This document shows, one piece after another, positions 1-42,955 of a stretch of 43,078 bases of DNA (position 1 is its first letter; the number at the start of each line of letters is the position of its first letter). Under the pieces are notes generated by a model. It ran no database searches and had not been told where the DNA came from. It was given only the letters and a program-made list of their open reading frames with translations. A program made the translations under genes and the position numbers. The DNA comes from Punctularia strigosozonata HHB-11173 SS5 (Eukaryota; Basidiomycota; Agaricomycetes; Corticiales; Punctulariaceae): positions 1,674,120 to 1,717,197 of the forward strand of contig NW_006767439.1 of NCBI RefSeq assembly GCF_000264995.1, written 5' to 3'.

Positions 1-674
1 AAATGGCTTTAAAAGGATATCTACCTGAATAGTCATTTTCAGAACCTCCACTCCTTAGGTCATTGTAAGCCAGTTGCGCCACCCATTATCCGTTTTCTGA
101 ATGTAAGATCAGTGAGTTATCACATCACACGTTTATTTCAACTTTTTACAATGCCACATTATTCCCACATATTCTTGCATCATTTCTCCACACTATTTAA
201 TATTACAACATTAACACCTATACTCGGGTGTGTGAACAAACAAATTTAGTTTGGTTTTTTGCACTGATTTTGAAAGAGGTATTTTATTATCTGGAGAGCC
301 AAAACTTGCTGTGTGGCTATGCAGCCTAGTGTCCATTGATTCTATCGCATGGAGGGATTTTTGGAGGATGATAATGACCCAAGTTGATAGACCCACTCTG
401 TCCAATCCTCAATTCCATGTATTCAGTAAATCAGCTGTAGCGGCCGAAGGAACATTCCCACGGTCATGGGAGTGTAATATTTGGATTCACACAATAATTC
501 TGCACAGATTTAGGTACCCGATGGAATTGAGCCTCAATTCCATCCAAACACAAGGATAGAGCTACCGTATTGGGCTCACAAACTGCCCTGCACTGTGTTT
601 ATCATAAACATTTTATCGGTGGCTGCGTAGTCATGCACTTTTTCCAAAAATGGTACCAGCCTACTAGTATCCTG
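1..674. other. AT-rich flank without a recognisable gene
   Basis: I read both strands and found only short open frames with no family resemblance, splice structure or repeat. The stretch is visibly richer in A and T than the rest of the window. A 12-base word starting TGTAAGATC occurs near base 103 and again at the left edge of the LTR-like insertion at 2642. It is too short to prove a second LTR copy. Confidence 0.4.
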
Positions 675-1289
675 CTATGCTACATTTGTAGGTGGTAGTC
701 CACCAGTCTGAGATGGGCGGAATTGAGGCTCAACCCCTAGCTGGGCCGTGGATAGGAGTTTGGTGAGCCTATCCTCTGCTGCCGGGGGTAGGGTAGCTGT
801 AAGTGTTATGAGCTGAGCATTGAACATCCTTGCTTTCCACACATTCTCCATGGACAGTCGGAAACTGATCTGCATGAACCTGGAGTGAGCTTCGTCCAAC
901 ATGAAGCAAGTGACCGGATAGGGGGAGCCAAAGTGATGGCTGGTGATGGCCTCCTTCCAGGACGCTGATCCGATGTGATCGTAGCTGACTATGACGACTC
1001 GGGCAGAGGAGGGGATTTGTCCTTCCCTCCAGACATGGTGCTCAATGCCTGCCCGTTGCAGCTTACACACCGCATCCTCCATTAAGACCTTCAGCGGAAC
1101 AGCCAAGACGGTGGTAGCCTGGTCCAGAAGGCCAGCAATTATTACCGGTGTGGTCTTGCCAGCGCCTGTTCCCAGGACGACCTGCATGTCGTTGTGGCGC
1201 AGAAGCATCTCGTAAATGGCCTCGCATTGACCTGTAGATCGGAGATTTGCTTCCTTCCCGTAGAGCATCTGCATCTCCTTCCTGACCAT
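675..1289 (-). pseudogene. RecQ-like helicase, N-terminal half (probably the severed 3' part of copy A)
   Basis: A 204-residue frame beginning at a real ATG contains the first RecA-like lobe of a superfamily 2 DNA helicase. Motif 0 is seen as R-S-T-G-Q (about residues 17-21), Walker A as GTGAGKT (40-46), the DEAH box as LDEAH (131-135) and motif III as TATLP (164-168). The frame ends right after motif III, so the second lobe with motifs IV-VI is absent and the product cannot be a working helicase. Its motifs are closer to the fungal zinc-finger/RecQ fusion proteins than to housekeeping RecQ. It lies on the same strand as the recombinase-like gene at 9.1-12.1 kb. The CACTA element sits exactly between them, so I infer it is the downstream half of that gene. 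It may instead be an independent fragment. Confidence 0.75.
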
Positions 1290-2100
1290 GGGTTTCCAAT
1301 ATCAGATCTGAGCTGCCTCCGGCTGAGAGCCCTCCTATGTGCATTGCGATTGGGGATCGTTCGCGTCTCCTGTATCATCCTCTAGCTTAGGCACCTGAGA
1401 TACTGGAGAATCCATCTCGATATCCAAGGGTGAGCTACGGCCGTTTTCTATCGCCAGAGTCAGACATGAGGTAACTGCGTCAATCAAACCGAAAACACTT
1501 GCCTTCACAGCTGGCACTGCCGGTTCTATTCCTGTTGCCGGTTCGTGTGCTGGGATAGGGGCGATGATATGCATGAGCTTCGTTCTGTGAGTCGAACGAT
1601 CAGATTGATGATATCTCTTCCCCTGCGTTCGGTGTCGATCGGATGGAGGACCATGGGGGTGATGGAACTATTTCCCTGCTCATCCTCAAGTGTCTCGTTT
1701 TATCCTGTGACAACACAGATGGGGCCTCAGCATTCCTGCTTGCAGAGACCTGCATAGGGTACTGTGCACAAGAGTTGGGACTGGTAGATGGTGGACGAGT
1801 CTTCGAACTGGATATTGTACCGCACACAGAGTGCAATGTTGGATCCACGTTTGCAGTGGGAGTGCATGGAACCCTAGGCCCAGTGAGAATCGACTCTGCG
1901 CGTGTTCGCTGGAAGCCGCGTGTGTGTGCGTAGGACACTGTCTATGTGCGCGGTTTGGGCACAACCTGCATTTTCGCAGATGAACATGTACATATATATT
2001 CGAAATTAATATTACAGCTGCGAAGTAGGCGACATGCCATGTCTGTTGCTAGCAAGGTGATGACACGTTGCGCAAGACGAGCGAAGTCCTTCCCATGTGG
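1290..2100. other. Linker region with low-complexity minus-strand frames
   Basis: Minus-strand frames at 1335-1574 and 1600-1938 are rich in Pro, Ser and acidic residues. They could be the poorly conserved linker that precedes the helicase lobe in this family. No motif or convincing splice pair ties them to the helicase frame, so they are not called as a gene. Confidence 0.25.
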
Positions 2101-2880: not shown

Positions 2881-2887
2881 TATAAAT
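2881..2887 (+). promoter_or_regulatory. TATA box of the LTR-like element
   Basis: TATAAAT lies directly downstream of the bZIP-site array. It is followed by a long pyrimidine-rich stretch without ATG, as expected of a U3/R junction. Confidence 0.5.
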
Positions 2888-9073: not shown

Positions 9074-12000
9074 TCAACCCGCCGTCGACTCCGACGAGCT
9101 TCCGGCACTTCCACTGCTGGCCACGACGTCGTTTCGAGTTGTTCTATGCATGTATTGTAATTTCTGTACGAGATACATATGCATTATGCTGTATTCTCTT
9201 GAGCCGCAGGCCAGCGCAGAGCGATCCAGACGAGCAGCATACCGGGACAGACTGTAGCATACCATAGCCGTTCGCCATCTGCGAATCTGCATCACTGTTG
9301 CGCTATGGTAAGCTTTGATGTGCGTGATGGTGGCTTCCGCAGACACGCGCATCTCGAGCAGACTGACACAGAGTCGATTCTCACTGGGCCCTAGGGCTAG
9401 ACATCGGGAGTCGCTCCCTAACATGCTCTGGGAGAACTTGGGGGACGTGATATCAGCGAGTGTCTTGAGCACGTTGCAATCACACTGCGTACCAGTGATT
9501 TCATTCCCGTCTGACTTGCTTGCGATGGGATAGTCACCCTCTTCCCATCCTATTGCATCTCGAGGTTCATTCCAATGCGCAATTGATCTCACAGCCGCCT
9601 TAACTGCACTTGTGATCTCTTCACGGATTGTCTGCAGGATTTGATCAGAAAGGCCCATATGTATGGCCGCTTTGGAGTTGATGGCGGATAGTGCTTGAAG
9701 TTCCTCTCGAATGATGGTTCTGATGGTATCCTGCAGCATCCTGTCCGAGTCTTCCTTCTTCTTTGTGCAATCGTGAAAGTGCCCTGCCACACAGAGGGAC
9801 TCGAACTCCAAGGTACTGCACCGATCGAACAAAAGTAGTACCCCTTCCGGAACGACCCTCATAACGACTTGCCACTGAGCGGCCCGCTCAAAGCTTGCCT
9901 GCAGCAGATGCCCGCTGTACTGTCCATTGGACGTGTTTGATCGTGCGTATATCCGGCGGTCAACGTTGTTGCTATGCCCCATGCCCATGACGTCTATGTG
10001 CTCGAGGTTGAGCTGGGTCTCCACCTCAAGGGTAATACCATGGAGGGCCCTGTGATCGCATCGGAAAGCCTTCAGAGCATGTCGTTTTGCGTTCGCACCC
10101 AGGGGAGCCCTGCATACCTTCATCCCTTGCTCGGACATGATGGTGCTGAGAGCCTCTGGGTCAAAGGGCTGCCCCTTAAAGTCAGAGAATATCAAACGCT
10201 GATACCCCTCGCCGGCCTTGGGATTGGCTGGCCACAGCTTCTTCGAGAGCCAGGCCACAAAGGGTCGGTAAACCACCAAGACTTTGACAAGGAGGTCGGC
10301 CGTGAATGCGTCGAGCGGGCGAGGGACCTCCTTCTGATAGGCGGTGGAGTGTCCCTGTTTCCAATACTGAGTGGTGATCGTGAGGTACCTTCCAAAGAAG
10401 TGAAGGCCCCGTATCGAGTCGGTGTATGGCCCGTTAAGATATTTGAGGGATACCAGCTCGGTGAACCTTGGGGGAGGGCCGCTCAGGTTCATCGTCATGA
10501 TGAGGAGATTTCATTCAAGGTCGGTCAAGGATCGGAGCCATTCAAATCCGTGCACCATATCTACCTGGAGTTCCATGAGATCGGACTCGTCCGGGCTGAT
10601 AAACATCCACTTTCGAGCGGTGGGATCAGACATGATGACGTTGAAAAACATGATTTTGCTGTGCAGCAACCGGTTCCTGGGATCAGAAAGGAATGAGTAG
10701 CTCTGGCTCCTTGAGGTCATGTTGTCCTTGAACGCAGATATGACTATGCCCATGGGACATCCTAGAGAGGTCTTGACATCGGCGGCCTTTGTCCATGCCT
10801 GAAGGCTGGCATAGAGGGCGTGAAGGTTACAGAGAGTGATCTCATGCCCTTTATGGACGAGTGAGGTGAATCCGACCGGATCCGTCAAGATAATGTTCAC
10901 CTCCATTTGGCTGCTCATGGCGACGTCGGTGATGAGGTGCCCCTGAGACTTCATGACCCCGAACGTGCTGCAACCTCCGCTGGTGTAGAACTTGCGGATG
11001 CTCAACGTGGCGATCTCCAGGTCCCTTGCTGATAAACTTGCCGCTTCGAGGTATATTTCCTGAAGGGTGCACAGTCAGATTGCATATTGCATGTGGGAGA
11101 GAAGCGGTGTAACATGGACGGCCTCTTTGAATTGGCTGTTGGGTCATATAGATAGCAGGATGATGCAACGCATGACGGGGTGGGGAATGGCATTGTCGGT
11201 TGTCTGGAGATGATCCCAAGCCCGCAGAAATAACCCGCTGAAGATGTGGTGCATCAACAGCATCAGCGAATCCTCAAAGGACACCGTGGTTGCATTCATT
11301 CCGACGGTGGATTCGAGCGCTTCCCAAAGAGTCACCAGGTCTGCTGTATCGGGAGGACAGCCTGCAACTGAATAGGCGGCAGGGTCCAACATATCCTGCC
11401 TCATGATCATGAGCAGCAGCGCTGCGACCATACAGGAATATTATGCGAGGCTCACCGCTTCTTGGAGACCCTTGAAAGGCTTGTGCTCGAGTCTGAGGAG
11501 TGTAGGATTAGAGACAGCAATGGATTCTCTGAAGAAGCCAGCTGAAACTTACTCTGACTGCACATTGGCGGTGACCAGAAGTTGCAGGACAATCGGCAGA
11601 CAGTTGGCGATGAGGGACTTGCATTTCTTCAGGTACTGAAACACAAGCCCTGAAACGCCTGCTAGAGGATCGAAATGCTGATTCAATGTGTCCACAAGCC
11701 AGCACAGATTGTAGCTGTTGTAATCCTGGACATGCTCTGGCCATTTCAACGCTGTGAGCCAGTAGGGTATAAGCTTGGGACTGGTGCCGAGAGAGACCTC
11801 GTTCATCTGCTGCATCTTGTCTCTGATTCGTTGAAGCTTTTCCACGCCGGGCTGAGCTTTGGCGTCAGAAAGATATGGTCCCATCACAAGGAATCGGGTC
11901 TTGTAGTCAAGCGGGACCAGAGACTGCACGTATTGCACAAAATGCAGCTGGGCTGTTTCATCGTCGGCTTGCCTGGGTGGCCAAGCACAGTCCTTGTGGG

Positions 12001-12117
12001 AGGTAGAGTAGTGCTTGCGTAAGCGATTCTTGTAGTTTGTTGAGAAGAAACGGCAGGGTGTGCCGTCTTCCAACCTCTCTTTGCATGCAAAACCCTTGTC
12101 ACATGTTGTTAGGATCT
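9074..12117 (-). pseudogene. Copy A: zinc finger + tyrosine-recombinase-like part of a RecQ-fusion gene, with four in-frame stops
   Basis: One frame runs through nearly the whole span once a 60-nt intron (11493-11552, donor GTAAGT, acceptor CTCAG) is removed. It starts with a C-x8-C...H-x4-H finger near 12085-12010 and continues through a long helical region. It then shows recombinase-like signatures: GPPPRFTEL (box I, R..E) near 10475, a YWK lysine near 10360, NAKRH at the HxxR position and GHS-x7-Y at 9979-9947, with His to Tyr exactly 9 residues apart. A Ser-rich tail ends at 9074. Four stops interrupt it: TAA 11441-11443 and TGA at 11144-11146, 11075-11077 and 10511-10513. Each continues in frame into family-like sequence. 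The helicase lobe expected next is missing here and probably lies at 675-1289 beyond the CACTA element. I take it as dead. The 5' start is unresolved. Confidence 0.75.
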
Positions 12118-16796: not shown

Positions 16797-19700
16797 TCAA
16801 GCCAATCCCATCAAACTCCTGCAAGCCTCCACCTTCGAGCGATCCAGAGACTTGGTGAGCAAGTCGGCAGGCATCTCCGCCGTGGGGATGTAGCTGACAG
16901 AGATCTTCTTCGCCTCAACGGCATCCCTAAGCCAGTAGAAGGCCAGGTCGAGGTGCTTCATGCGCCTGTGATGTTCTGGGTTCTTCGCCACAGAGAGAGC
17001 AGACTGGTTGTCGATGCGGAGCATAGAGGAGGAGCTGACATCGAAGCCGAGCTCAGTGAGGAGGTTCCGGAGCCAGATGACCTCCCTGCTGGCATAACAG
17101 GCGGCCACATACTCGGCCTCAGTGGTGGAGAGAGCCACGACGGTCTGAAGCTTCGAGCTCCAGCTCACGGCGCTGGTACCGACCTTGAGGATGTAGCCAG
17201 AGGTGGAGCGGCCGTTGTCCGGGTTGCCGCCATGGTCAGCATCGGAGAACGAGCTGAAGAGCTCGCCGGAGTCGTCAGGAGCGTACCGGATGCGTAGGTC
17301 GAGGGTGCCCCGCAGGTAGCGGAAGAGGTGCTTCACGGCCTTCCAGTGAGCCGGGCCAGGGTTGCTGGTGAAGCGAGAGAGAACGCCGACGGCGTAGGAG
17401 ATGTCGGGCCGAGTGCAGATGGCCAGGTAGAGCAGGGCACCCACGGCGCTGACGTACGGCTTGTCCTGCATGTAAGCGACGTCGTCAGGAGTGCTGGGAG
17501 CCATGGAGGTCGACAGGCGAAGGTTGGGATCCATAGGAGTCTTCACCGGGCTGCAGGTGCTGAAGCCGTAGGTGTTGAGGATGTCGAGGATGTACTGGCG
17601 CTGATCCAGAGTCATGGTGCGGTTGGGGCGGTCCCAGGTGATGTGCACGCCGAGTAGGAGCGAGATCGGACCCAGGTAACGAAGCTTGAAGCGCCGGGAG
17701 AGCTCCTCGATCACGGCATCCTTGGCCTCCTGGCTCTTGGAGACAATGGTCAGATCATCCACGAACACCGGCACGATCACCTTGACACCGTCGCGCTCCC
17801 AGACATAGATGCTCTTGTCGCAGCGGACCCGGGAGAAGCCCATCTCCTGCAGGGCGGCGTCGAGCTTCTGGTTCCAGACGCGAGGAGCCTGTTTGAGGCC
17901 GTAGAGAGACTTGCGGAGCCGGCAGACGACTCCGGGCTTACCCTGCTCAAAGCCGTCGGGCTGGTCCATGTAGACCTCCTCCACCAGATCACCGTTGAGG
18001 AAAGCGTTGGAGATGTCCACCGAGTCGGCCTCCCAGTCCTCGAGGGCACAGATGGCCAGGATAGCGCGGAGAGCGGCCCACTTGGCTGTAGGAGCAAAGG
18101 TTTCGTCGAAGTCGACTCCCGGGCGCTGGCTGAAGCCCTTGGCGACGAGGCGGGCCTTGTAGCGCTCCACAGAACCGTCGGCCTTGCGCTTGACCTTGAA
18201 AACCCAACGGGAACCGATGGCCTTGCGTCCGGGAGGCAGCTGGACCAGCTCCCAGGTCCCATTGGCGATGTGGGCCTCGATCTCCTCCATGGCGGCCTTG
18301 TACCATAGATCCGAGTCAGGACGCTTCATGGCCTCGCGGAAAGACCTAGGCTCGTTGCCCCGCGCCTCAGCCTTCAGTGCGCAAGTCTGAAAGGCGGCCT
18401 TGAGGCTCTGAGGGAAGGAGAGGTGGTCTGGCGACGAAGGAGCGGCGTAGATGGTGTCGAGGCCAGCTAGCACCAGCATGGCGTCCTCTGGCTCAGCAGC
18501 AGCCAGGGGATCCTCGGAGGAGGTGTCGTCTTCGTCCTCGCTGCTCTCGATGGCTGGAGTGGGTTCCCGGTAGGCCTGAGGGGCCGGAGAGCGAGAGGGG
18601 ACGATCCACCAAGGCTGCACGGGCTTGGGCGCACGGCGCTCGCGTCTGAGGGCCAGAGGAGGAGTCGGAGGGCGTTCAGGAGGCGTAGGAGGGCGCTCCA
18701 GGTCCATTGACGGCGCTGCAGAGCGAGGGACAGGCGATGGGGAGGCCTCAGGCGAGGCAGAACCAGTGGGAGGCGAGGACGAAGCATGAGGAGACGGCGG
18801 AGGCGTCTCAACTCTGGCAGGAGCGACAGGCGGCACATGGGGCGGTTCCAGATCTCCCCCCGGTTCAGGGATGTCCTGAGCATCCTGAAACGGCGGTGGT
18901 GCCATATCTCCCCCCGGAACCGGCGCAGGTGCGTCAGGAGGAGAGCCAGGAGGGCCGTGCAGCGAAGGCAGGGCGCGGAGGAGGAAGTCGGATGCAGCAG
19001 AGTCCCAGCTGGCGGTAGAACGCGCTCCGGGGAAGTACCGCTCGTCGAAGATAGCGGCGTTAGAGATGATCCGCTTGCGGGTGTCTGGGTTGTAGAAGAG
19101 CCAGGCCTTGTAGTCCTCCGCGTAGCCGACGAAGATGCATTTCTCAGAGTGGGAGGAGAGGCCACGGCGCTTGTCCTTCTGGATGTTAACGTAGGCGACA
19201 CACCCAAAGACCCGGAGGCGTTCCACAGAGGGCTTGATCCCGTACCAGCCGAAGTAGGGTGTTGCGCCCTTGGGCAGGGCAGCGGAGGGCGTCCTGTTGT
19301 GCGCATGGACGTAGGCGGCGACGGCGAGGCCCCAGAACGATGGAGGCAGGTTGGACTCGCTCAGGAGAGCCGTGGCGCCCTCGGCCAGAGTCCGGTTGGC
19401 GCGTTCCGCGACGCCGTTCTGGTGGGGCTCGTTGCGGACGCTGTGCTCGCGTCGGATGCCTTCGGAGGTGCAGAGGTCGTCCCACTCCTTCGAGATGAAC
19501 TCGCCGCCCTTGTCGTCGCGCAGTGCGCCGATCTTGCGTCCGGTAAGCCGCTCAGCAAAGGCCTTGAAGCGCAGGAAGGCCTGGAACGTGTCGCTCTTGC
19601 GCCGGAGCAGCACCACCACCCAAAAGCGGTGGGCATCGTCGACAAAGATCACCCAGTATCGATACCCTTCAGGCGTCTGGACAGGGATAGGGCCGTGGAC

Positions 19701-20375
19701 GTCCATGTGGACGAGACCCAGGGCCTCTGACGCGCGCCGGGAGGCCCTCAGAGGCACAGGAGGCCGGTGCAGCTTGCCCGAGATGCAAGGCTCGCAGATG
19801 GCGTCTGGAGCGGCGTCCGAGTCGAGCTTGAGGCCAGAGACGCTGTCCTCCTTCAGCATCCGGCGGACATAGTCGACATTGACGTGCCCGAAGCGCCGAT
19901 GCCAGAGCTCGAGGTCCAAGGCGCAGGTGCTGGCAGGCTGGGCGTGCTCCAGGGCCGGCAGGGTGCGCCCGTTGACGATGGCGGCGTTGGAATCGCTCAC
20001 AGACGCGGTGAACAGCGTGGTAGTGCCTCGAACGAAGGCCATGAGGCCCCTGGTGATCACAACGCGAATGGATTTGTGCTGAGTGAGATACAGGACTGAT
20101 AGGAGGTTAGAGCGCAGCTCTGGGACATGTAGCACCCTGGTCCACTCCACTAGATGTGATTCCTGACCCTTCACCACGGGCTGGAAGCGAACGGAGCCAA
20201 CACCGACGGCGTAGACGAGTTTGGAGTCGGCGAGGCGAATGGGGACGTTGCAGGGCGCGTAGGAGACGAACCAGTGACGGTGAGGCGTCATATGAGCAGT
20301 GGCCCCTGTATCGGCGGTCCAGTCAGCGCTGGGGACGTCTAGAACGTTCAGACGACGAGCATAATACACCTGCAT
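16797..20375 (-). CDS. Copia polyprotein: protease, integrase, reverse transcriptase, RNase H
   Basis: An unbroken 1192-codon frame. Protease: DTGATAHM near residue 22. Gag-pre-integrase: LELWHRRFGHVN. Integrase: catalytic D in HMDVHGP, second D in RDDKGGEF, E in NGVAERANRTL. A long Pro/Ser/Glu-rich linker follows (about 18.4-19.0 kb). Reverse transcriptase: WVFKVKRKADGS, then VDISNAFLNG and a VFVDD box in place of the usual YVDD. RNase H: STTEAEYVA, DNQSA and a C-terminal DLLTK motif typical of copia. The intact frame contrasts with the broken neighbours and suggests recent arrival. Just upstream a frameshift separates it from the end of gag (LAGNAG words near 20390), and a TGA lies in the remnant near 20453. 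Without a 5' LTR it has no promoter of its own. Confidence 0.93.
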   Translation of the reverse strand: MQVYYARRLNVLDVPSADWTADTGATAHMTPHRHWFVSYAPCNVPIRLADSKLVYAVGVGSVRFQPVVKGQESHLVEWTRVLHVPELRSNLLSVLYLTQHKSIRVVITRGLMAFVRGTTTLFTASVSDSNAAIVNGRTLPALEHAQPASTCALDLELWHRRFGHVNVDYVRRMLKEDSVSGLKLDSDAAPDAICEPCISGKLHRPPVPLRASRRASEALGLVHMDVHGPIPVQTPEGYRYWVIFVDDAHRFWVVVLLRRKSDTFQAFLRFKAFAERLTGRKIGALRDDKGGEFISKEWDDLCTSEGIRREHSVRNEPHQNGVAERANRTLAEGATALLSESNLPPSFWGLAVAAYVHAHNRTPSAALPKGATPYFGWYGIKPSVERLRVFGCVAYVNIQKDKRRGLSSHSEKCIFVGYAEDYKAWLFYNPDTRKRIISNAAIFDERYFPGARSTASWDSAASDFLLRALPSLHGPPGSPPDAPAPVPGGDMAPPPFQDAQDIPEPGGDLEPPHVPPVAPARVETPPPSPHASSSPPTGSASPEASPSPVPRSAAPSMDLERPPTPPERPPTPPLALRRERRAPKPVQPWWIVPSRSPAPQAYREPTPAIESSEDEDDTSSEDPLAAAEPEDAMLVLAGLDTIYAAPSSPDHLSFPQSLKAAFQTCALKAEARGNEPRSFREAMKRPDSDLWYKAAMEEIEAHIANGTWELVQLPPGRKAIGSRWVFKVKRKADGSVERYKARLVAKGFSQRPGVDFDETFAPTAKWAALRAILAICALEDWEADSVDISNAFLNGDLVEEVYMDQPDGFEQGKPGVVCRLRKSLYGLKQAPRVWNQKLDAALQEMGFSRVRCDKSIYVWERDGVKVIVPVFVDDLTIVSKSQEAKDAVIEELSRRFKLRYLGPISLLLGVHITWDRPNRTMTLDQRQYILDILNTYGFSTCSPVKTPMDPNLRLSTSMAPSTPDDVAYMQDKPYVSAVGALLYLAICTRPDISYAVGVLSRFTSNPGPAHWKAVKHLFRYLRGTLDLRIRYAPDDSGELFSSFSDADHGGNPDNGRSTSGYILKVGTSAVSWSSKLQTVVALSTTEAEYVAACYASREVIWLRNLLTELGFDVSSSSMLRIDNQSALSVAKNPEHHRRMKHLDLAFYWLRDAVEAKKISVSYIPTAEMPADLLTKSLDRSKVEACRSLMGLA

Positions 20376-20600
20376 TGCCAGCCAACTCGATGTGGACAGC
20401 CTGTCCAGTGGTCTGGGGAGAGCCGGGGGCCAACTTCACATCTTCACCAGATCCATCTCAATCCCCACCACATGCACCTTCTGACCCTGCTCGGTACTCG
20501 ACATTGGCGTGGGCATCTACGTCCACGTCTTCAAAACCAAGCTCCACCTGAGCAGGTACACTCAGCTCAGGAAGGAGTATGAGAGTATCCGGGAGAGCAA
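20376..20600 (-). pseudogene. Remnant of the copia gag C-terminus
   Basis: A minus-strand frame with an acidic stretch (GFEDVDVDAHAN) and TGQAVHIELAGNAG leads towards the protease but is out of frame with pol and contains a TGA. No CCHC knuckle is present; that part is already lost. Confidence 0.5.
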
Positions 20601-30039: not shown

Positions 30040-32353
30040 ATGGAACTCGACCGCCCGTTTGTGTTGCCAAATCCCAATCCTCAAGCGATGGACCTGGTCA
30101 CTATATATGCTGCAAACTAAAAACACTCCTTGATCAACAATTGGGAGTGGGATTCCCAATGTACGTCTTTCTTTTTTCGCATTCGGGCATCACCCCTCAC
30201 TACAACTTTTCCGGACAGGCTGTCGGTATTTTGATGCTCGCGTCGCCATGAATATGTTCGGCACCGTTGTAATGTACTCCCCCAATATGATCGACATTCC
30301 ATCCCCTCCGCATGTAAAAGATCTTCGTATTGCGATGGCGTATTGATACGCGAACGGCCAATTCAGTGCGCATGAGTGGTCTCTGCACCCTCAATTCTAC
30401 AAGCCCACCGAGCCGCACCTTCCCTGGATTCCGACAGCCGCTGCGCCTTTCCCGCATGGGTTTGCCCATGTGGAGCTCACGAACATGCCGCCTCACGTCA
30501 TCAATTACAAAGCATTCTTTAAGCTCGAAAAGGCATACGCGAACGTGCTGAAGAAGCATAGTCAGTTTCTCAGGCACTGGTGGGAGACCGGCCGAGTCAG
30601 CACTCCCTCCATACACGGCGACGACGAGAAGATCTACGTCCTGGTCGACACCGTGATCATGCGGATGCACTACGCCGTCGTGCACACCGTCGTCGACTTT
30701 GGGTTCCACATTGAGGACCTGATGATCCTAGCGGCCAACGCCCAGCATTGCATCTTTGAGGGCTGGGGCATCTATTTCTGGTTGACGAGATGGCCAGTTG
30801 ATCCTCGTCGGATCACCCATCCGGTCGTTGGCGCAATCGTCACTGACTACAAGCAGCTGCGAGAGTTGTATGACATGGGCCTGCCGGTGTGGATGTATAT
30901 TCCACGGTCACAGCTGCCGACAAACCTAGCAGTCGCCAAAGTCGTTGCCCAGTGCCGCCACGATGTGTTCGTGGAGGTCAATCGTCGCAGCGGGAACCCA
31001 TGACCGATCGCCGTGACCGGCATGAAGAGTGCGATCGCTTTGCTTTGGGCTTCCTTGCCGTCATTGTACTTGACGACAGCAGGATGGATAGGTGGCTCTA
31101 TCAGCAGTGTCGAGATGAGCGAGCAGCCCGCGCTTGTGAACACGAACGAGTTCGGATTGGCCAGTGTCCAATTCAACTCGATCTATAAGGCCAGAGAGAC
31201 TTCAGCGGTCGCTGGTCCGTCACGCTCGCAGCCTGTGGCGGGCCCATTGCGCACTACAAAAAGTAAGTTGCCGTTTGCCGTGTACGAACGATCTATTAAC
31301 AGGACACTATCAGCTACGACGGTTGCGCGTCGGTCTGCGTCACAGGTGTACGTGCTGAAATTGAAGGGCCAGACGCAAGACAAGAACCGGGGTCGTCAAC
31401 TGCAGGCAGAGAAGGCCGCCTTGTACAATGCTATCGCAAACCTCGAGAAGCCGTCGATGCCGCATCCAATCCTTGCCGTCTTCAAGTCGCTCATCACGAG
31501 CATCCCGGTCTCAATAGACAGGCCATTCGCGATGCCAGCCCCACCCATCACTCTTGTCGCTGCGAACACCAGTCAGACCGGCAAACACTGCCGCTACGGC
31601 TGGATTCAATTTCGGAGGGTGTACCAAGCGTTATTGGCTAGTGACCTGTTCCGCTGTTCGCCGGACAACGTTGCATCGTTCCAGTACAGTCGCGGGGCTT
31701 GGAAGGAGCTTCTGAAGATGGACAAGTGGCCCACCCTTTTTGATACTCACGCGGTGCCCAGAACGACTGACAAGCACCTCGAATGTGCTGCCACAACGAT
31801 TCGCGAGCTGTTGAGCAAGTGTGGCGTCCCTTTCCCGTCAGATGAGCCCAACACCCTGTATTTTGGCAAAGTACTGTCCGATGGCGACCTGCAGAACACC
31901 GCGTGGAGGATGCTCATCGTGTGGGACGTCAACGAGCACGCTGTTCACCAAGACCTCCTCCTGATTGCATACCACTTCCTTCGGCGCAACAACCGTAACA
32001 AAGAATTACCGCCCGCCGCCTACAACAGGACCATCGCCGCCATCCGAGCATGTATGGCAGACCGTGTCTTCGACTTCAAACGCAACCCCACGTCGCCGAA
32101 CGGCTTTGGTGACAAGGACATGTACTCTCGTCGCAAGTTCATATTCGCGCTCTCGGATCTCATGCAAGACTGGAAGGTTTTGGGGTTGCTGGTGCTGCCG
32201 TTGTGGGCTACCACCGATGATTGTCTGTCGCATATCAGCTACGTCGCGCTCGAGAAGACGGTCGTGACCGCGTACATGAACACGTTCCTCGACGTATTCT
32301 GCCGACTCCCTTCTGTCCCGTTCCATCACCCAGGCGTCCCATCCGCTTATTAA
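30040..32353 (+). pseudogene. Long degenerate gene of unknown function
   Basis: Exon 1 (30040-30160) and exon 2 (30219-32353) are separated by a 58-nt GTACGT...ACAG intron. After splicing a single frame of about 750 codons runs to TAA at 32351-32353, interrupted only by TAA 30118-30120 and TGA at 30344-30346 and 31001-31003. Visible features are an INNWEWDSQ motif at the end of exon 1; a FSAHEWSLHPQFYKP block; a Pro-rich stretch; a central AGPSRSQPVAG linker with a basic segment; and a C-terminal helical domain (RRKFIFALSDLMQDW). I recall similar hypothetical proteins in agaricomycete repeat regions but know no function. There are no zinc, nuclease or membrane signatures. Long readability apart from three stops suggests recent inactivation. 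Confidence 0.55.
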
Positions 32354-32641: not shown

Positions 32642-35600
32642 TTACTCGAAGACATTAAAGTGTTCGATAAGGGCCCAAACTACGTAGAAGTATCGATACC
32701 CATGGCCAGGCTCGGAGCCAAAGAGCCAACTGCTCAGATCCGACGACGGTTGGTGCAATGGGGGGAGGGGTCCAATGACCAGCTCATACTGCTGGAGAGC
32801 AGGCCAAACCGCTTCGCGAAGGGCTGCATTGCGAGAGAAAAGGTATAGGGCAGGGAGGATCAATCTTTTGTCCATCTCTGGCCTGCACGTGGTGCTGGAA
32901 TTGATTCCACGGTAAGGACGATGAGTTTTGGGAAGGTCTTCCTGTAGCATCTGCGAGACATATGATGATTAGTACCAATCAATTGCGCAGAAACGGAGGC
33001 CGTACCGTATTGAATCCACAAAGCCAACAAACCTTTCTCAACTTGGCATACTGTTCGATCCAATCAATGTATTGCGAACGATGTTGGCCCTGGGTGTTGA
33101 AGACCGGGCACTCCTTGATTCTGTGTTCGGGCTGGGGTCATGTTGCACTCTGCAAGCAGCAGACAACGCATATCTTGCGAATGTCGTCCCTTGCCTTTTT
33201 GAGGCCTGCGGCAACCGTGTGCGACATTTCCTTCGTTATTTGCCCGTTCGCAATGTTCACCGCCGTTGCGTGCGGCCTTGTCCAGGATGATGGGACCGCG
33301 GAGGGAGGCGGTAGTGGAGTGATGGGCTCGATGTAGGTATTGTCCTGCCTGGTGGAGGTGGATGGCTCCTCGTGCTCCCTGAAGCAAGGGGTTAGCAAAA
33401 AGTGCGAGAGTACATGCAGGAAACACACTCACTCTGGCAGTATGTATCAATTCACCCGCCGCGTGTGCCACGGGAAAACTTGATGGACGGTGCCGATGGA
33501 CGCGGTGCCGATGGACTGCGGACACGTCACTTGATTGACAGGCGGGGCAGCGCGAGGTGGACCCGCGGGCCTGTGGACGGGAACAGGCAGAGCAGCGCGA
33601 GGTGGACCCGCGGGCCTGTGGACGGGAACAGGCGGGGCAGCGCAAGGTGGACCCGCGGGGCTATGGACGGGAACAGGTGACGAGGAGAGCTCGATGATCT
33701 CCAACGGCGTCGGGACGGGAACAGGCGACGATGAGAGCTCGATGATATCCAACAGTGTCGGGAGGTAGGACGACAGCGAGCTGCGAGGGTCGTTCCACAG
33801 CATGTCGGGACCTGCGATTGGAGAGCTCGTACCGCTTGAACTGCATATGAGGGCGTGTCGTGTTGGAGACGATGACACCGGGAATGGCAAAGACCAGAGC
33901 GCAACAGGTGGATAGGCAGCGCTGGAACGACCAGCATTCAGGGACGAATCACTGAACACGTCGTCCTGCTGCTGAACATGCGAGAGCATGGGAGTGGAAG
34001 TCGGCGGCAGGGGCAGAGGACGGCGACGACGGTCAGCTGGACGAGGTGGCGAAGAGGGGGCACTCGAGCTGGCATCGGGAAGATCACTGAAGATCTGACG
34101 AGCCAGGGAGGAGTCGATCGGAGACGGGTTTCCGATCGTAATGTATGTATGGCCAAGGCCGCTGTTCGGCGCTGGCTGAGGCAATGCCTCGATGTCAATG
34201 GCCATGTAAAGGTCGTCGTCGCCATCAAACATGCCGTACGAGCTGTCCGACTTGGGCTGGATCGTCCGACCGTTCCCGTGCTTCGTGGAGGGGGGGAAGG
34301 AAGTGTGCGGGTAGGAAGTACGGGAGGAGTTGCGGGACGAGGCGCGATGGATGGGATGGGAGGAATGGGGGTGGGAATGCGTTGAGGAAGAGGAGCGGGT
34401 AAAGATGGTTGCTCTGACGATGCGGGCTGCCTGTTCACAAAATGAGAATACGGACAATATGAACGACTGGGGAAAAATGCACCTCGCACCGACACCGTCC
34501 GTCTTACAGAGGCCTGGATAACCCATCCCTCTCCCAGCAGGCACCTTGTTCATCTCCGGGAGATAAGGGGAAATGACCGGCTCGCCCCACGTTGGGTTGT
34601 CACGAGGAAAAAGAGTGGGCAGAGGACCGAGTATGCTCTTCTTGCAGTTCATGCACAGCTGCACATGAGGGAGCTCGGGGCAGGAAACGTTGCAATCATT
34701 GAAGAACTGGCTGAAAGGTAGCCGTAAGCAGTCGACGGTACAAAGAGCAGTGACTATATCGGCGTCGCCAAGGAGATTGTGCGCCGCAGGAGGATGGCGA
34801 AAGAAGCTTGCGTTGTCGACTTCAATGAACCACACGCAAGCAGGCCTATTGTCACGACCAGCCTGTCCTGCCTCTTGCTCAGCCAGGAGGAAGTTGCCAG
34901 GAAGGCCAAAGAAGAAGATGTCCCGGACGTGTGGAACGTTGACACCATATCTGAGGGCCAGAGTTGCGGCGACGACAGGCCCGACCTGCGACCACTGGTG
35001 GTAAACTTCGGCCTGGTGATCAACAGGCAATTTTCCTGAATACACCGGGCAGCAGAGCCTCGCGGACACGTCTTCACATTGACCGATGGATTGTGCAAAC
35101 ACGATGGCGCGATCTTCGGTGTTGTACTGCTCCCGCGAACGGCGGTACTCGCATGTGGTGAACTCCAGCGCCTTCTGCTTGCTGTTGAAGTACCGGTAGT
35201 GATACTTGAGCTCTGGCCGAGTAATAGGAGCACGGATGGTCTGAGCATCGCGACTGCCCGTGGCGTTGAGCAAGGCCGGGATGATACGTGTGGGCACCAT
35301 AGCCGTTAGCAGGATGAGCTGAAGGCTGAACCTGCCGAGACTTGCGAGGTTCCAGAAACAGTTGCGGAATGACTGGTGTTCGACGATGAGATGAAACTCA
35401 TCGAACACCAGCGTGATCAGAGAGCTAGCGGCTGCTTTGTCTTTGGCCCAAGAGTAGAAATCGCGGATCGTTGCATTCTCGGGAGATATGAAGACGATGG
35501 GGGCCTCTGGGTTTTGGTTCTCTAGAGTCCACACGCTGAACTTGAGACCGATGCCGCGGCATTTGTTCTTCCACTCTTCAACCAAAATGCTGATAGGTAT

Positions 35601-38600
35601 GACAACGACGACGAACTTGCTAAGGGACCGGTAATAGTAGGATACCGCAAGCAGGATAAAACTCTTGCCCGCGTTTGTGGGCAGAACTGCCAACAGGTCG
35701 TGCCCAGTCAACGCCTTCGTGACGGCCACACCTTGCTCGAGAATGCGAAACAACGTGGTCTCCTCGTTGAGCATCTCTCTGAGGCACTTCAACGCCAGTG
35801 CCACCACCCTGTCCTTCTCCTGGGCATCATGCTGCGCCTCGGACACGCGAGGGATACGGGAAAGGATGGAGGAGACCGTTTGCACGAAAGATTCATTCAG
35901 CGCGCTTGCCACGCCGTCGAGTACGAGCTGTGCTATCTGCTTTTGGGATTCAAACGATGGCTCGACGTTGACGACAACTTGAGCATGGCCAGATGCGACC
36001 AGAGCCACCATGTCCTGGGCGTCAGGATGCGGACAAAATCCGAGCGCCACCTGATGAAGTTGGGAGTGATACGTGTTCTCCCGCAACTTGTACGGGCTGA
36101 CCGACTTCAGCATCATAAATTTGTTAATGCGTACCACCGATCGTCGACTTCGGGTGTGTGCCCTCGCATTTGGGCTCTGAGACGATGAAACTTGTGCGTA
36201 TGGCGCTCCCGCGTCTCCGCACTGACGTTGAGGGCAAAGGCTTCTACAGCGGCGGTTGCGGCACGCGTGTCGTGAACGTTGAGCTCGATGCCGAGGTATT
36301 GGCACATGAGGCCAGCGAACGTTGTGTTCACGGTGTCGGATCGTTGAGCTTGTCCGGCCAGGGGGAAAACATCGTCGTACATGCGCATCCGCGCTTCGCT
36401 GCCATGAGTCTAAGCAGCGGGTATTAGATGAAGAAAAAAGAGATGGAGGACGAAAGTCACGCACCATCTTGACCAAATACTCCATCGCAGGTTGCACGAT
36501 GACCTTGGACCAAAGCAAGAGCTCCCGAATTTACGTTGGGACAAGCTTCGTGGTGACCTTTTGTTTGCCGGTCGCGCCAATGTTCTTGTGGTAACCGGTG
36601 ACGAGATACAACTCGTCGGTGAAAACGTACAGGCTGCGCATGTGGCCCTGCTGAGAGTTTGTGCCAATGAGTGCCTGCCATTCCGTTGCGTGGCCAGGAG
36701 GACCACAGGCGAACCAGGTGATGGCAAGGAATATATGTTGGAGGCGGTTGTAGTGCGCATACACGCGCTTGATTTCATCCAGATGCCAGATGGACTCGCT
36801 GTCTTGAGCCTTGTCGTTGACGAAGCACTTGTGGGTGCTCTCATTCCCAATCCACACATGCAGAAGAGCGTGACAATACTTCTTGAAGTCGTTCTCCGGA
36901 TGCTGGATGAACGAATAGTGTAGCACCGAGTTTTGCGGCGAATTGACCAGCCTGGTGCGTTTGAAATCGAACGCTTCGTCGTCGTCGGATATTCCACAAA
37001 GGATCTCCTGTCACAGGATATCTATGGCTTCAGCAACGGCCTTGAGAATCGCATCACCGATCTTCTTCATACTGACGACCTTCCCGTGGTGAAGCCAGGT
37101 CTTGTACTCCTTATCCGCAAATTGGATCCATGGTATGCCTTCCTCGTTGAGCCGGATGGAAGATACAATTTGATTTGTGGATAAAACGAGTGCGAGAGGC
37201 ATGCTGGACTCGAGGTCAAGGCAGGGTTTGATACATGGAAATATCCTGAGCACCGATGATGAGTACCGCGTATACCCTCCAAAACAAAGGCGGACTCACT
37301 CAAGGTAAGGAGCATCTTTCTCCTGCGAATACAGAACACCCTGCGTGAAGATAGACAGTCTACAGATATACAAGAGCGGCGCGATGAAGTGGGAGATGGA
37401 CGCGGCAAACTTGAGACGGCCCTGCGCATTGTACGAGCTGAGGACGAGGAAATTGTACAGGGGGGTGTAGAACTTGTTGGGATCGCAGCCGACCTTCTTG
37501 TGTGACAGGAGGGACCATAGGAGACGATGGAAAGGCTCGAGAACGGGGCGGTCAGTGCCAAAACGATCCATGAAAATCTTCTGCTGCCGATCTTCTTCAA
37601 GCTGCTCCATGCTGACGGGCTGCCCACCGGCTTCGTTAGCAATCTCAAGCTGCCTGAAAAGCTCGAGGGCTGAGGACCATTGGTCATCAGTGAGATCCAT
37701 CTTGAAGTGCTCGGGTAGGTCGTCGCGGGCGGCGCGGATGACAAAGCAAAGGGCAGGCAAGAACTTGTGGACGTACTCCAGCCAGGTCTTGGTATGGTAG
37801 AACGAACCCTTGTACTCGTCTCTCCTACGCGGCGATCAGACATGAGAAACACAACATATGGCAAACACAACTTACAACCCGATGTTCACGAGCTTGGACT
37901 GTATTGTATACGACTCGTCCTTGAGAGCATAGAGGGCGACGTCGACATAACGCTCTACATAGAGCGACAGTAAATCCACCACAGGGGGGTCGCGCGGTTC
38001 GTCCACAATCTCTTGCAGCTGCTGACCCGTCTTGCCCTTCACGTATGGAGACCAGCCTTCACGCCGTTCGAAGACGGACAGCTGGCAAAGATTCTTGGGC
38101 GACTTGATGGGGACTTGCTCAAAAGCCGGCTCCACGAGCATGGGCTTGACACGGTCCCATGCCTGCTTTGCCTCTGCACTGTTGGCGATGGGGTTGAGCG
38201 AGTGCTGGTCGACGGGGGAAAAGCGGCGGTCCTTCCTGTTCTTGAAGAAGGTCTGGGCTTTTGCCCGATAGTAACGCTTTGCATCAGGAACAACGGGATT
38301 CTGTTTCAAGGGACAAGAGTGCCAGCGAGCGAAGGAACCCTCACTCTCGAAGCTGCGGTGACAAGATGCGCAGAAGACGATGGAAGGGTAAATGGTGAGA
38401 CCATAATGGATCTTGCGATTGCGGGGCCTCACTCTCTTCATTATGTCAGGCCCGCAAAGCTCAAAACTCAGACAGATGGCGGTAAGACGGTCCATATCGG
38501 AGACGGACAGAAGACGGCGATGCTCGGAATTGAAATGGCCATGTATGCGCTCGGGGTCGAGAGCGTATCGACAAATGGTACAAATGAGTATTTTATATTG

Positions 38601-39748
38601 CATATCAACGACAAATTTAGCCTTGGACATGACGCGCTGGGTATCCCGGTCCTTGGGCTGCCAATGATGCGCGCCGCGATGGATGGTAGCCTTCAAGCGC
38701 TTCACTTCCAACTCCTGATCAAGAGGGGGAAGGAGGGGGGAGATGTCGGATGACCGGAGAGTATTTTCAGGCTCCGCGTCAGATCCCTCCAGAAGATCGT
38801 CGTCGCCAGACAGCACCGACTCCTCGATGTCGGAAGCGGCGGTAGTTTCGACGTCCGAAGGAGTGGGGTCTTGGTGGTCGCAGTCCTTGCTTGGGTCTTT
38901 GCAAGGGTCGTCCATCGCGATGTCTGTGTTGCCGCCACTCGCGTGGCTGAGGTAGCCGTTGTCGGGATCACCATGAACCTTGCCCTCGCTGTCGGCGTGA
39001 ACGTCCTCATCAGCGTAGAGGTTGCCGTCAGAATCGTTGCTGACGAAGGCGGGAAGAGAAGGAGCGGAGCTGGATGGTGTGGCAGGGGAATGCTCTGCAC
39101 CAGACGAGGGGCATACAACACGTCGGGTCTTTGGGCCACGACGCGGGTGCTCGCTTTCCCCGTGGACAGTGGAGGACACCATCGACGACGAAGGCCACTT
39201 GCGCTTGCCAGGGGCGTCGTTGTCGCCGGGACTCACTGCAGGTGTCCCTTGAGAGAGGTGGCGAGCCAACCCGCCAAACATGCTTGAGACTGCTGACCCC
39301 AGACGGTGGGCTGCGGACCAATCAGGCGGAGTGGGTTGTGCGTCCTCGGGAAGAGGAACTTGTGGCCAAGCGGGTTGCGGGGTGGGGTGATCGGATGCCG
39401 CAGGCGTCTGGTGGCGACAAGTTTCAGTCGCTGAAACGACATCCTTGAGGCCGGGACACGAAACGCTCCGAATATGATCCTGTTAATTGATCAGCAATGC
39501 GAACCACAAGACGGGGACAATGGACATACCCAGAGAGGCTGGAAACTTTGCGATTCATACGGACAGTAGGGGCAGCAAACCATATCCGTGATCGAGTCGC
39601 GATGTAAGTAGACTATCTGACCGGCGACTTTTGTACGGCTGCGCGTCTGATGCCAGGCCTCGCGATGAGCATCCGCGGTTGTATATGTGTAGTCTTCACG
39701 GCATCGACACCCCGTCTCCATGCATCGGAACACGGCAATGGGGGTCAT
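32642..39748 (-). pseudogene. Copy B: C2H2-like fingers + tyrosine-recombinase-like + RecQ helicase fusion, near full length
   Basis: ATG 39746-39748. Exons by eye: 39748-39530, 39479-37876, 37824-37300, 37245-36465, 36409-33433, 33378-33006 and 32950-32642. All introns are 50-55 nt with GT-AG ends. Order of domains: an N-terminal C-x4-C...H-x4-H finger; an acidic linker; CTIC...H-x4-H and CASC...H fingers; helical region; recombinase-like block (GPPGHATEW, YHK, HDTR, GHT-x7-Y at 36163-36131); RecQ lobes with PTNAGKS near 35680, VFDEFH, LLTAMVP, a motif V stretch and QEAGQAGRDNR; Cys-rich patch CNVSC...CMNC; Pro/Ser tail with repeats; terminal CVVC...CWLC zinc-like domain. Defects: TGA 37011-37013, TAA 36531-36533, a frameshift near 36113-36125, TGA 33447-33449 and 33138-33140. 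Box I has His where Arg is expected. In the family, helicase plus recombinase would act on chromosomal DNA. Confidence 0.8.
33541..33771 (-). repeat. 45-bp and 48-bp in-frame repeats in the copy B tail
   Basis: Three 45-bp units (33541, 33586, 33631) encode PVPVHRPAGPPRAAP-type blocks. Two 48-bp units (33676, 33724) encode a related PVPVPTPLEIIELSSS. Both lengths are multiples of three, so expansion kept the frame. This suggests the repeats grew while the protein was still under selection. Confidence 0.85.
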
Positions 39749-41075: not shown

Positions 41076-41540
41076 CTCCCGGCGACATCTCCACCAAAAT
41101 ATTAGTGGAGATATGCCCACAGCGCCTTAAATCCCCAGAATATTCATGGAGGTACCCGTCATAGTTACGAAGAGGCGCTGTCAGACAGTGAGTAGCTATT
41201 CAGTTGAGAGCCGTCAAGAAACATGGACGGTGAATTATGAGCTTCATTTCTTTCAATTTAAAAAACCAATTGGTCGATAAATACTGCAATATATGAAGCT
41301 TCTAAAATCTTGAAAAAATAGCCAGTGGGAGGGAATTGGCGAACATGATTTTTTTGACATACTAACCGTGGGAGATTGATCGCTGGATAATCCTCCAGGC
41401 CCTTCTCACCGTTTTAGGAGGATATGATGAATTACGGAACGACTACCAATATAAAGCGGGGGGCGAGAATAGTTCTGGATTCAGTACTTCTGGGGCTATG
41501 CACTGACACCCCAAACATCCAAAACTGAGATGCCCGGAGG
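41076..41540. other. AT-rich island between copy B and copy C
   Basis: From about 41220 the DNA is markedly richer in A and T than its surroundings, with no open frame of note. Copy C breaks off at its right edge, so this may be the junction of a deletion or insertion. No terminal repeats were identified. Confidence 0.35.
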
Positions 41541-42955
41541 TCAGCCTGACCTCCTGGCTGGGACAGGCGTAGAAGTCTTGTTTTTCTTGCTCAACTTTCC
41601 ATTATGTTTGCTGTTGAAATGGCCGTTCAAAGCGGTGGGGTCGAGCGCGTAACCACATTTATGACATATGAGAACACGATACGTAAGGTTGACCGTACAC
41701 TCAGCCTTTCTGAGCAGTTTCGCCATCTTGTCTTCTCCGTCCTGCGTTAACTCATCTCGGCTGAAGTGAACGGTGGCCTGGATCTGTGCAACTTCGGTGT
41801 CGCACTTGTGTTGCCCTATTCCCTGCCAAATGTCCCTAGGGGCATCCTCCCACTCTGACTCCGAGCCAACCTCGATGTCGACATCGTCCTCGTCACCTAA
41901 CACCAACCAGATCTTCTGGTCTTCGTCATCCATACTTTCAGGTTCCTCGTCTCTGAGATGCACCATAGCCATGGGATAGTCAACGTCGTCTATGTTGTAG
42001 TAGTCGAAAAGGGGGCTCGATGGCAGTGTGCCGACTTTAACTTTGCTGTCGTTGTTGAAGTTCTCGGCCTCGGCCTCGTCCTTGTCCTCGTCTTCATCTT
42101 TGTCCCCAAAATTGCTGTCGTCTTCGTCGTCCTTGCCCTCGTACTCATCCTCACCCTCATCCTGGTCCTCGTTGTCATCCTCATCCTCGTTGTGACGCTC
42201 ATCGTCAGCGTCGTCTTCGACTTCGTCGATCAATCTAGACTCACAGCGGGCCTTCTTATGCTGACAAGGAGACGGGCAGGCGGTTTCTTCGTTCGACCTC
42301 TGACGCTTGCTCCCAATGGAGGATGCCCGCTGGAGGGTCTCTGCCTGTGGAGCAGAATGCGGCAGTGGACGCGACTTCTCGTCCTGAGAGGGCCCGCCGG
42401 TCGACAGTGAAGACCGACCCGTGATACGGCGCGTCAGTGAGTCGATCATTCTGACGGCAGCATCAACAGCGGTCTGGGGTTGGAGCTGCTCGTCCGTGGA
42501 ACCAGACGCGACAGTGGACGAGGCAATATGCATCATCATGTGAGTCTACGAATCGTCCACAGTCAGCACAAGGATTAACCAAGACGAAGGGAGCCACTTA
42601 CACGTGCTGCCCGGGCACCTTTGCAGGACCGGCCGCAAGTCCTGCACTGAAAGTCCTCCGTGTTACCGATGCGCGTCGCTCGATGCTTGACGCCGTCAAC
42701 GCGAACGTGCGTCTTCTTTTGGTGGTATTTCTCCACGTGGGCCTTGTAATGATGGTCTTTGTCCTGTGGGTTCGGGCAATACGGGCGATCACAATGATAT
42801 ACCGGGCCCGGCGGGTTGCTCTTGATTGCAGTCCCTTCTTCTGCGGGTGTAGAGGGTTGCGTGGTTGAAAGGGTTGGAGCAACCGGCGTTGACAGAAGAG
42901 CGGGGGAAGACAGCAAAGTGGCATGCCCCGGTATAGGAGGGGGCAGGACTGCCTG
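41541..42955 (-). pseudogene. Copy C: N-terminal zinc-finger part of a third fusion gene, 3' truncated
   Basis: An acceptor near 42958 starts an exon with a Pro/Thr-rich leader, then YHCDRPYC...HVEKYH (C-x4-C...H-x4-H) and FQCRTCGRSC. A 56-nt intron (42546-42601, GTAAGT...CGTAG) joins it in phase 0 to a long exon. That exon has a Ser-rich linker, about 60 residues of almost pure Asp/Glu and then CHKCGYALDPTALNGHFNSKH. The second finger matches copy B's CTICRYALDPERIHGHFNSEH. The finger order and linker positions are the same as in copy B. The frame ends at 41541, shortly after this finger, and no recombinase or helicase part follows. It is therefore a truncated copy or a stand-alone finger gene. 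The 5' end probably lies beyond the window. Confidence 0.65.

What the first reader, a model, noticed from the sequence alone, without database searches (positions are those of the whole stretch)
32642..39748. Tyrosine-recombinase signatures inside a zinc-finger/RecQ helicase fusion gene
Reading the frame through six introns, the segment before the helicase lobes has, in order, a box I-like R..E site (His replaces Arg in this copy), a lysine in a YHK hairpin, HxxR (HDTR), and GHT-x7-Y with His to Tyr exactly 9 residues apart. That is the established order and His-Tyr spacing of tyrosine recombinases such as XerD. RecQ motifs I-VI follow. Known: fungi carry repeated RecQ-like helicase genes, often subtelomeric. 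Inference: these genes encode a recombinase and a helicase in one protein and could be a mobile element of their own class. I am not aware how far this fusion is already described.
Basis: partly seen in the sequence, partly recalled or inferred. Interest (0 to 1): 0.85.

Follow-up and report, generated by a model that had tools for sequence, protein, structure and literature searches.

The report
Telomere helicase gene with recombinase signature
Helicase genes near the chromosome ends of a wood-decay fungus carry a conserved active-site pattern like that of DNA-cutting recombinases and sit in units with a sharp, repeated border, which suggests that these puzzling genes belong to a mobile element.

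Summary
The window is from Punctularia strigosozonata. The gene at 39748-32642 (minus) reads OrsD-type zinc finger, then R..E / K / HxxR / GH-x8-Y, then a RecQ-like helicase. This copy is dead: two in-frame stops, a frame change just after the Tyr box, and His for the first Arg. Intact copies keep the Arg. The six named residues are identical in four divergent lineages (Punctularia groups A and B, Athelia, a metagenome protein), among only 17 invariant columns of 211. The fold is not shown: both AlphaFold models were poor, and profile similarity to XerD is weak.

New here: a defined element end. 1.6-1.8 kb upstream of the gene lies a 19-bp palindrome, 18 more bp, then an abrupt joint. Twenty-three such borders were read, with 21 different flanks. 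In six sites with a comparable target the joint follows AG (one of them ambiguous). Genome scans found 30 palindromes, 22 within 2.2 kb of a contig end, partly because contigs break in repeats. A second gene lies tail-to-tail beside all four group-A copies examined. Passages read on telomeric RecQ genes mention no recombinase. Best reading: a subtelomeric mobile element encoding a tyrosine-recombinase-like/RecQ fusion; catalysis and mechanism are inferred.

The parts
32642..39748 (-). Gene A of this copy (pseudogene): zinc fingers, tyrosine-recombinase-like domain, RecQ-like helicase, Cys-rich C-terminus
   Evidence: intact relative on C30
38520..38582 (-). OrsD-type finger CTICRYALDPERIHGHFNSEH
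   Evidence: PF12013, 25.1 bits, cut-off 26.6; position
36678..36695 (-). Box I-like GHATEW (Arg replaced by His in this copy; GRATEW in C30)
36558..36596 (-). Lys box GYHKNIGATGKQK
   Evidence: Lys identical in four lineages
36251..36277 (-). Box II VHDTRAATA (HxxR)
   Evidence: Arg identical in four lineages; the His is kept in group A only
36131..36163 (-). GHTPEVDDRWY, His to Tyr 9 residues
   Evidence: His and Tyr identical in four lineages
34851..35684 (-). RecQ-like helicase core from Walker A-like LPTNAGKS to QEAGQAGRD
   Evidence: PF00270 and PF00271 over cut-off; positions
30347..32353 (+). Companion gene X (two open pieces, 30347-31003 and 31004-32353), tail-to-tail with gene A
   Evidence: found beside all four group-A copies examined; no Pfam family
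41536..41572 (+). Upstream border of the unit: palindrome GGAGGTCAGCCTGACCTCC and 18 bp ending GTAG; homology between copies stops here
41604..42799 (-). N-terminal part of a third A-type gene (OrsD finger and first exon), cut by the border at 41572
   Evidence: PF12013 26.5 bits, 27.4 bits over cut-off; positions
9947..10483 (-). Group B recombinase-like domain: SGPPPRFTEL, QYWKQGHST, AKRHALKAF, GHSNNVDRRIY
675..1301 (-). Group B helicase piece; its homology to the C2 copy stops at 754
   Evidence: DEAD 40.7 bits
719..755 (+). Border of another unit (palindrome type GGAATTGAGGCTCAACCCC plus 18 bp) that cuts the group B helicase
523..559 (+). Border of a further unit (palindrome GGAATTGAGCCTCAATTCC plus 18 bp)

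Best explanation
The gene is a telomere-linked RecQ-like helicase gene that also encodes an OrsD-type zinc finger and, between finger and helicase, a divergent domain with the active-site pattern of tyrosine recombinases. It belongs to a subtelomeric mobile unit of about 11 kb: companion gene X, then gene A tail-to-tail with it, then 1.6-1.8 kb of upstream sequence, then a border made of a 19-bp palindrome and 18 further bp. Shown: domain order, conserved residues, the precise border with many different flanks, AG at the joint, clustering near contig and chromosome ends, decay of this copy. Inferred: the recombinase-like domain breaks and joins DNA at the border, with AG as the shared core; finger and palindrome guide binding; the helicase opens the DNA or supports copying toward the chromosome end. 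The far (X-side) end is not resolved and may be the chromosome end itself.
For: Six named residues identical in four divergent lineages, among 17 of 211 columns (chance about 1e-7 if columns were random), His to Tyr 9 in each. Groups A and B are one domain family: hhalign 92-94% against at most 0.4% in 20 shuffles. The middle domain is under purifying selection: dN/dS 0.15 (helicase 0.21) in group B, 0.12 and 0.17 in two group A exons (dS near saturation). OrsD, middle domain and helicase are annotated in one protein, P0013. Border: 23 read, 21 different flanks, same 19+18 geometry in three palindrome types, two of them fully complementary although they differ at three paired positions. Joint after AG in 6 of 6 comparable targets, one of them ambiguous. 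22 of 30 palindromes within 2.2 kb of a contig end. Gene X beside 4 of 4 group-A copies examined.
Against: No fold evidence. hhalign with XerD is P 0.015 and 3% probability for group B only; group A and the joint profile score no better than shuffles. The His before the second Arg is absent outside group A. The palindrome lies 18 bp from the joint and not around it, unlike the inverted repeats flanking the crossover that tyrosine recombinases usually use. The far end, excised circles and direct repeats were not seen. No border was found for group B in the stretches held. Contig ends are enriched for repeats for assembly reasons too.
Confidence: 0.6

Rival explanations
1. Telomere-linked helicase genes spread only by homologous recombination or break-induced replication between chromosome ends, as yeast Y' elements do. 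The conserved middle domain is a DNA-binding domain that descends from, or only resembles, a tyrosine recombinase and does not recombine.
For: Copies cluster at chromosome ends; telomere repeats are attached at differing points inside units (C30 inside gene X; C2 left end; C19), as in end repair; the fold and profile tests gave no proof of a recombinase.
Against: Copying by homology would carry flanks along, but 23 borders have 21 different flanks and stop at one base. All six active-site residues are kept.
Confidence: 0.22
2. The border belongs to another, perhaps non-autonomous, subtelomeric element mobilised by an unknown enzyme, and the helicase genes are passengers.
For: Most borders were seen only as short pieces at contig ends without the gene. 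No border was found upstream of group B in the stretches held.
Against: In the window, C30 and C7:1726k copies the border lies 1.6-1.8 kb upstream of the gene-A start, and C30 and C7:1726k are alike from gene to border; the window and C30 copies have different palindrome types.
Confidence: 0.12
3. A Helitron-like rolling-circle element: a hairpin 18 bp before a terminal NTAG and a helicase gene recall Helitron 3' ends.
For: Palindrome plus 18 bp plus TAG at the end.
Against: Joint after AG and before G or A, not between A and T: of 23 borders 19 are followed by G and 4 by A. No Rep or PIF1 family in the Pfam scans of the pieces of A, B and X. Gene A points away from this end.
Confidence: 0.06

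Closest known systems
Telomere-linked RecQ-like helicase genes (UTASa/UTASb of Ustilago maydis; subtelomeric RecQ genes of Agaricus bisporus var. burnettii)
   Same: Multicopy RecQ-like helicase genes near telomeres; [quoted passage not shown]
   Different: The Agaricus authors report no domain besides the helicase core (PMC7473861, passages). Recombinase-like domain, palindrome border and companion gene X are not mentioned in the passages seen.
Tyrosine recombinases (XerD, lambda Int)
   Same: Order R..E, K, xxR(H), GH-x8-Y; GHSDNVDRRIY of group B falls on GHSDLSTTQIY of E. coli XerD in the free profile alignment.
   Different: No significant sequence or profile similarity; fused to finger and helicase; crossover site of unusual layout.
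Crypton transposons (CryptonF)
   Same: Fungal elements whose gene would be a tyrosine recombinase with a DNA-binding domain; no long terminal repeats (PMC3212892, passages).
   Different: CryptonF has a GCR1_C domain and 4- or 6-bp direct repeats at both ends; here OrsD finger and RecQ helicase, and a palindrome at one end; the other end is unresolved.
Starship elements
   Same: Fungal mobile elements built on a tyrosine recombinase (search listing).
   Different: DUF3435 captain and large cargo there; no DUF3435 hit here; unit of about 11 kb.
Helitrons
   Same: Hairpin near the end and a helicase gene (recalled features).
   Different: No Rep or PIF1 family found; joint AG^G/A, not A^T.

Membership tests
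Tyrosine recombinases | Catalytic set Arg, Lys, (His/Lys)xxArg, His, Tyr in this order, His to Tyr about 9 | tested here: met
   Arg, Lys, Arg, His, Tyr identical in four lineages, His-Tyr 9; the His before the second Arg only in group A
Tyrosine recombinases | Characteristic catalytic fold | tested here: inconclusive
   pLDDT 38.4 and 53.6; searches with the second model gave no credible match
Tyrosine recombinases | Profile similarity to known members | tested here: inconclusive
   Group B with XerD: P 0.015, 3% probability, boxes in register; group A, joint profile and wider sets no better than shuffles; no Pfam hit
Tyrosine recombinases | Tyr-dependent DNA cleavage and joining | not testable with these tools
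   needs protein
Telomere-linked RecQ-like helicases | RecQ-like helicase gene, multicopy, close to telomeres | tested here: met
   DEAD and Helicase_C over cut-off; C30 copy a few kb from telomere repeats, C2 copy 10-15 kb
Cryptons | GCR1_C domain next to the recombinase (CryptonF) | tested here: not met
   Pfam scans of pieces of A, of B (also as P0013) and X at E up to 1 list no such domain
Cryptons | Short direct repeats at both ends | tested here: inconclusive
   One end defined; X-side end unresolved
Starships | DUF3435 recombinase | tested here: not met
   No such family in the Pfam scans
Helitrons | Rep (HUH) and PIF1-type helicase | tested here: not met
   Pfam scans list DEAD and Helicase_C only as helicase families over cut-off, with ResIII
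Helitrons | Insertion between A and T | tested here: not met
   0 of 23 borders is followed by T; 19 by G, 4 by A

The most novel reading that the evidence does not exclude
A separate class of mobile element lives at fungal chromosome ends. A tyrosine recombinase fused to a RecQ-like helicase joins the element's palindrome border to an AG site near a chromosome end, and the element's far side becomes, or is copied out to, the new chromosome end. Successive additions would build the nested arrays seen on C7. Telomere-linked helicase genes of fungi in general would then be the transposase genes of such elements.
Probability: 0.3. Interest if true: 0.92.

Novelty: new variant of a known kind. Interest (0 to 1): 0.8.

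Why it matters
RecQ-like genes have been known at fungal telomeres since the 1990s (references seen) without an agreed function. If they carry a recombinase active site and a defined element end, they become testable as mobile elements: mutate the Tyr, look for covalent DNA complexes and excised circles. It would explain why these genes are multicopy, patchy between strains and tied to chromosome ends, and would add a recombinase-helicase fusion to the known kinds of tyrosine-recombinase element.

Tried and rejected

Sequence profiles: A1 and A4 against PDB sequences found nothing. hhalign against 81 XerD-type sequences, a mixed set (10 ORFs of this genome, lambda Int, some XerD) and the 10 ORFs alone gave a signal only for group B with XerD (score 24.5; shuffles up to 21.4 of 20 and 19.4 of 12); group A and the joint profile stayed within shuffles. 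The 10 ORFs came from PF00589 matches, of which 2 of 15 pass the cut-off; one (L059) was read at a length other than reported.

Homologues: three protein searches scored about 8000 candidates each and gave few fungal relatives. Four viral-contig scans found none.

Dropped idea: that the telomere side of the C30 copy is the element's natural end. It lies inside gene X, so it is a truncation. The X-side end could not be fixed from three weakly similar copies. No border was found upstream of group B in the stretches held, which contain runs of N.

Caveats on counts: of the 22 end-near palindromes, 15 were read as borders; 6 were not fetched and one (C8:1722568) was fetched but not recognised. Of the 15, 14 face their interior to the contig end and 1 (C2 right end) does not; most of these contigs lack telomere repeats, so breakage of contigs inside the repeat can cause this, and also part of the end enrichment. 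The C24 end, with telomere-like repeats at 2590, has no palindrome hit. Two hits of the first palindrome at two mismatches (C1:862356, C10:1503337) equal the control rate and are not among the 30. A degenerate border at C18:283 is not among the 23. The window's own border is not in the list (my pattern missed it) and was added. In A4 the second-exon fragments of C30 and C7:1726k are misplaced at the Lys column; one search used the first-exon row there. I recall ascomycete telomeric helicase proteins with a like motif set; that comes from no call and is not used.
Full report
Where it is. Names attached to database hits show that the genome is Punctularia strigosozonata HHB-11173, an agaricomycete. 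The window is C7:1674120-1717197, 49 kb short of the right end of a contig of 1,766,211 bases.

Check of the observation. The motifs are present, in order, at the stated place. The domain order is OrsD-type finger (PF12013, 25.1 bits, just under its cut-off), a middle part without any Pfam family, then DEAD and Helicase_C. The copy is dead: two in-frame stops and a frame change just behind the Tyr box. Its box I Arg is His (codon CAC against CGT in C30). A younger pair of copies shows the kind of decay: of 381 differences between the C30 unit and its C7 relative, 292 are C to T or G to A in that direction, 233 of them at CpG.

Relatives. In the same genome there are group A copies on C30, at C7:1726k and at C2:80x kb and a fragment at C7:1668k, and group B copies at C2:12 kb, at C24:25 kb and in the left part of this window, with a fragment on C12. 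The C30 gene is open over five exons to the helicase end, 1695 codons, with splice sites chosen by me. For group B an annotated 1730-aa protein, P0013, spans OrsD (23.8 bits, below cut-off), middle domain, DEAD and Helicase_C. All 8 PF12013 matches listed for the genome lie in or beside copies of this family. Outside Punctularia, Athelia psychrophila P0015 and the metagenome protein P0012 carry the middle domain.

Conservation test. MAFFT aligned groups A and B with the boxes in the same columns. hhalign between A and B gave 92-94% probability against at most 0.4% in 20 shuffles. Over four divergent lineages 17 of 211 columns are identical; they include first Arg, its Glu, Lys, second Arg, Gly-His and Tyr, with His to Tyr 9 in each. 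The His three residues before the second Arg is kept only in group A. Of 9 rows with a letter at the first Arg, 7 have Arg and 2 (window, C2:80x kb) have His; both those copies are decayed. dN/dS is 0.15 for the group B middle domain against 0.21 for its helicase, and 0.12 and 0.17 for two group A exons between C30 and C2 (dS near saturation).

What failed. Fold prediction was poor and its searches uninformative. Against XerD, group B alone gives P 0.015 and 3% probability, score 24.5 against shuffles up to 21.4; the free alignment puts R..SEL, RHAF and GHSD....IY in register. Group A, the joint profile and wider reference sets give nothing above shuffles. So the assignment rests on the active-site pattern, not on fold or profile.

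A defined border. Homology between copies stops at one base 1.6-1.8 kb upstream of the gene-A start (window 41572). The last 37 bases are a 19-bp palindrome and 18 more, ending in TAG. The same geometry recurs with three palindrome types: GGAGGTCAG-N-CTGACCTCC, GGAATTGAG-G-CTCAACTCC (one unpaired position) and GGAATTGAG-C-CTCAATTCC. The first and third are fully complementary although they differ at three paired positions. Scans found 15 sites of the first type at up to one mismatch and 15 of the second pattern; the reversed controls gave 1 per strand (at up to two mismatches) and 0. Twenty-two of the 30 lie within 2.2 kb of a contig end, in part because contigs break in repeats. Among the 100 of 104 telomere-pattern places that one search lists, 5 contig ends have repeats reaching within 200 bp of the end (C2 left and right, C9, C19, C30); each has a palindrome within 10.3 kb. 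C3, with repeats at 939, has two; C24, with repeats at 2590, has none.

Twenty-three borders were read (22; the window's own). They have 21 different flanks, starting with G in 19 and A in 4. Where an uninterrupted relative of the flank was in hand, the joint falls after AG: TTTTAG^G, CGAAG^G, GGAG^G, TCGAG^G, CCAG^A, and GCTAG^G, the last perhaps itself a border remnant; two of these alignments have mismatches at the joint. Two targets were hit twice by borders of different sequence (C18:557 with C25:97201; C3:338 with C6). In this window one border cuts a third A-type gene at 41572 and another cuts the group B helicase at 755.

The unit. Gene X lies tail-to-tail beside all four group-A copies examined (window, C7:1721k, C30, C2:800k); its one other match, at 29% identity, lies about 4 kb from the A fragment at C7:1668k. 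In C30 the telomere sits inside X, so that end is a truncation. The X-side end of the unit could not be fixed.

How it most likely works. Shown: domain order, conserved active-site set, precise border with many flanks, AG at the joint, clustering near ends, decay of this copy. Inferred: the Tyr domain makes the joint, AG being the shared core; the palindrome is a binding site or hairpin; the helicase opens DNA or supports copying outward. Against a textbook tyrosine recombinase speaks that the palindrome lies 18 bp from the joint and not around it.

Comparison with the known. Telomere-linked RecQ-like genes are long known. In Ustilago, UTASb with an OrsD domain lies near telomere repeats or 5' of the helicase UTASa (PMC10532341, passages). 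In Agaricus the authors found no domain besides the helicase core (PMC7473861, passages). 'Recombinase' has 0 occurrences in PMC7473861, PMC12857005 and PMC10532341 and one in PMC4522978. PMC10799480, a screen of fungal host-transposon fusions, has 'tyrosine recombinase' once and 'RecQ' once; the 12 of 14 passages seen do not describe this fusion. Seven paper searches joined recombinase or subtelomere terms with helicase or RecQ terms (five of the lists were cut short), and no title or abstract start listed describes it. Two further searches, on OrsD and on Starships, were not aimed at it. Most subscription papers are not in that library. Crypton features come from passages of PMC3212892, Starship features from a search listing, Helitron features from recall.

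Judgement. The signature is real and selected. A tyrosine-recombinase-like function is likely but not proven. The border is the stronger new fact. I rate it a new variant of a known kind, with a fair chance that it is a class of its own.

Noticed in passing
window 1878-9389: The group B gene is split: C2:10900-12024 matches window 754-1878 and C2:12018-14706 matches 9389-12098, so about 7.5 kb is inserted with a 7-bp overlap (possible target duplication). It holds an 864-aa ORF at 3302-5896 (+) with a weak Transposase_21 match (14.9 bits, cut-off 28.6).
   Followed up: partly
window 16797-20435 (-): A 1212-aa open frame that looks like a Copia-type retrotransposon polyprotein (recalled motifs, no scan run).
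   Followed up: no
C30:12694-13517 (L028) and C24:1761-2586 (L033): A 97% identical repeat that ends in GGGCGCCCTAA repeats, telomere-like sequence away from the contig end.
   Followed up: no
C7:1668k-1735k: Several units nested or in a row, all gene-A copies on the minus strand, 30-100 kb from a contig end without telomere repeats; perhaps an old chromosome end now internal.
   Followed up: partly
C18:283-439: A degenerate border (ending GGGGCATGGATAG) joined to the same target base as the border at C18:401.
   Followed up: no
L056-L065 (C13, C19, C9, C21, C1, C11, C15): Fifteen weak to borderline PF00589 matches elsewhere in the genome (2 over cut-off), with a GRW...Y box in the ORFs seen; none overlaps this gene family.
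   Followed up: partly
window 32642-33140 (-) and the C-terminus of P0013: A Cys-rich C-terminal module with CWxC seems shared by groups A and B by eye; not tested.
   Followed up: no
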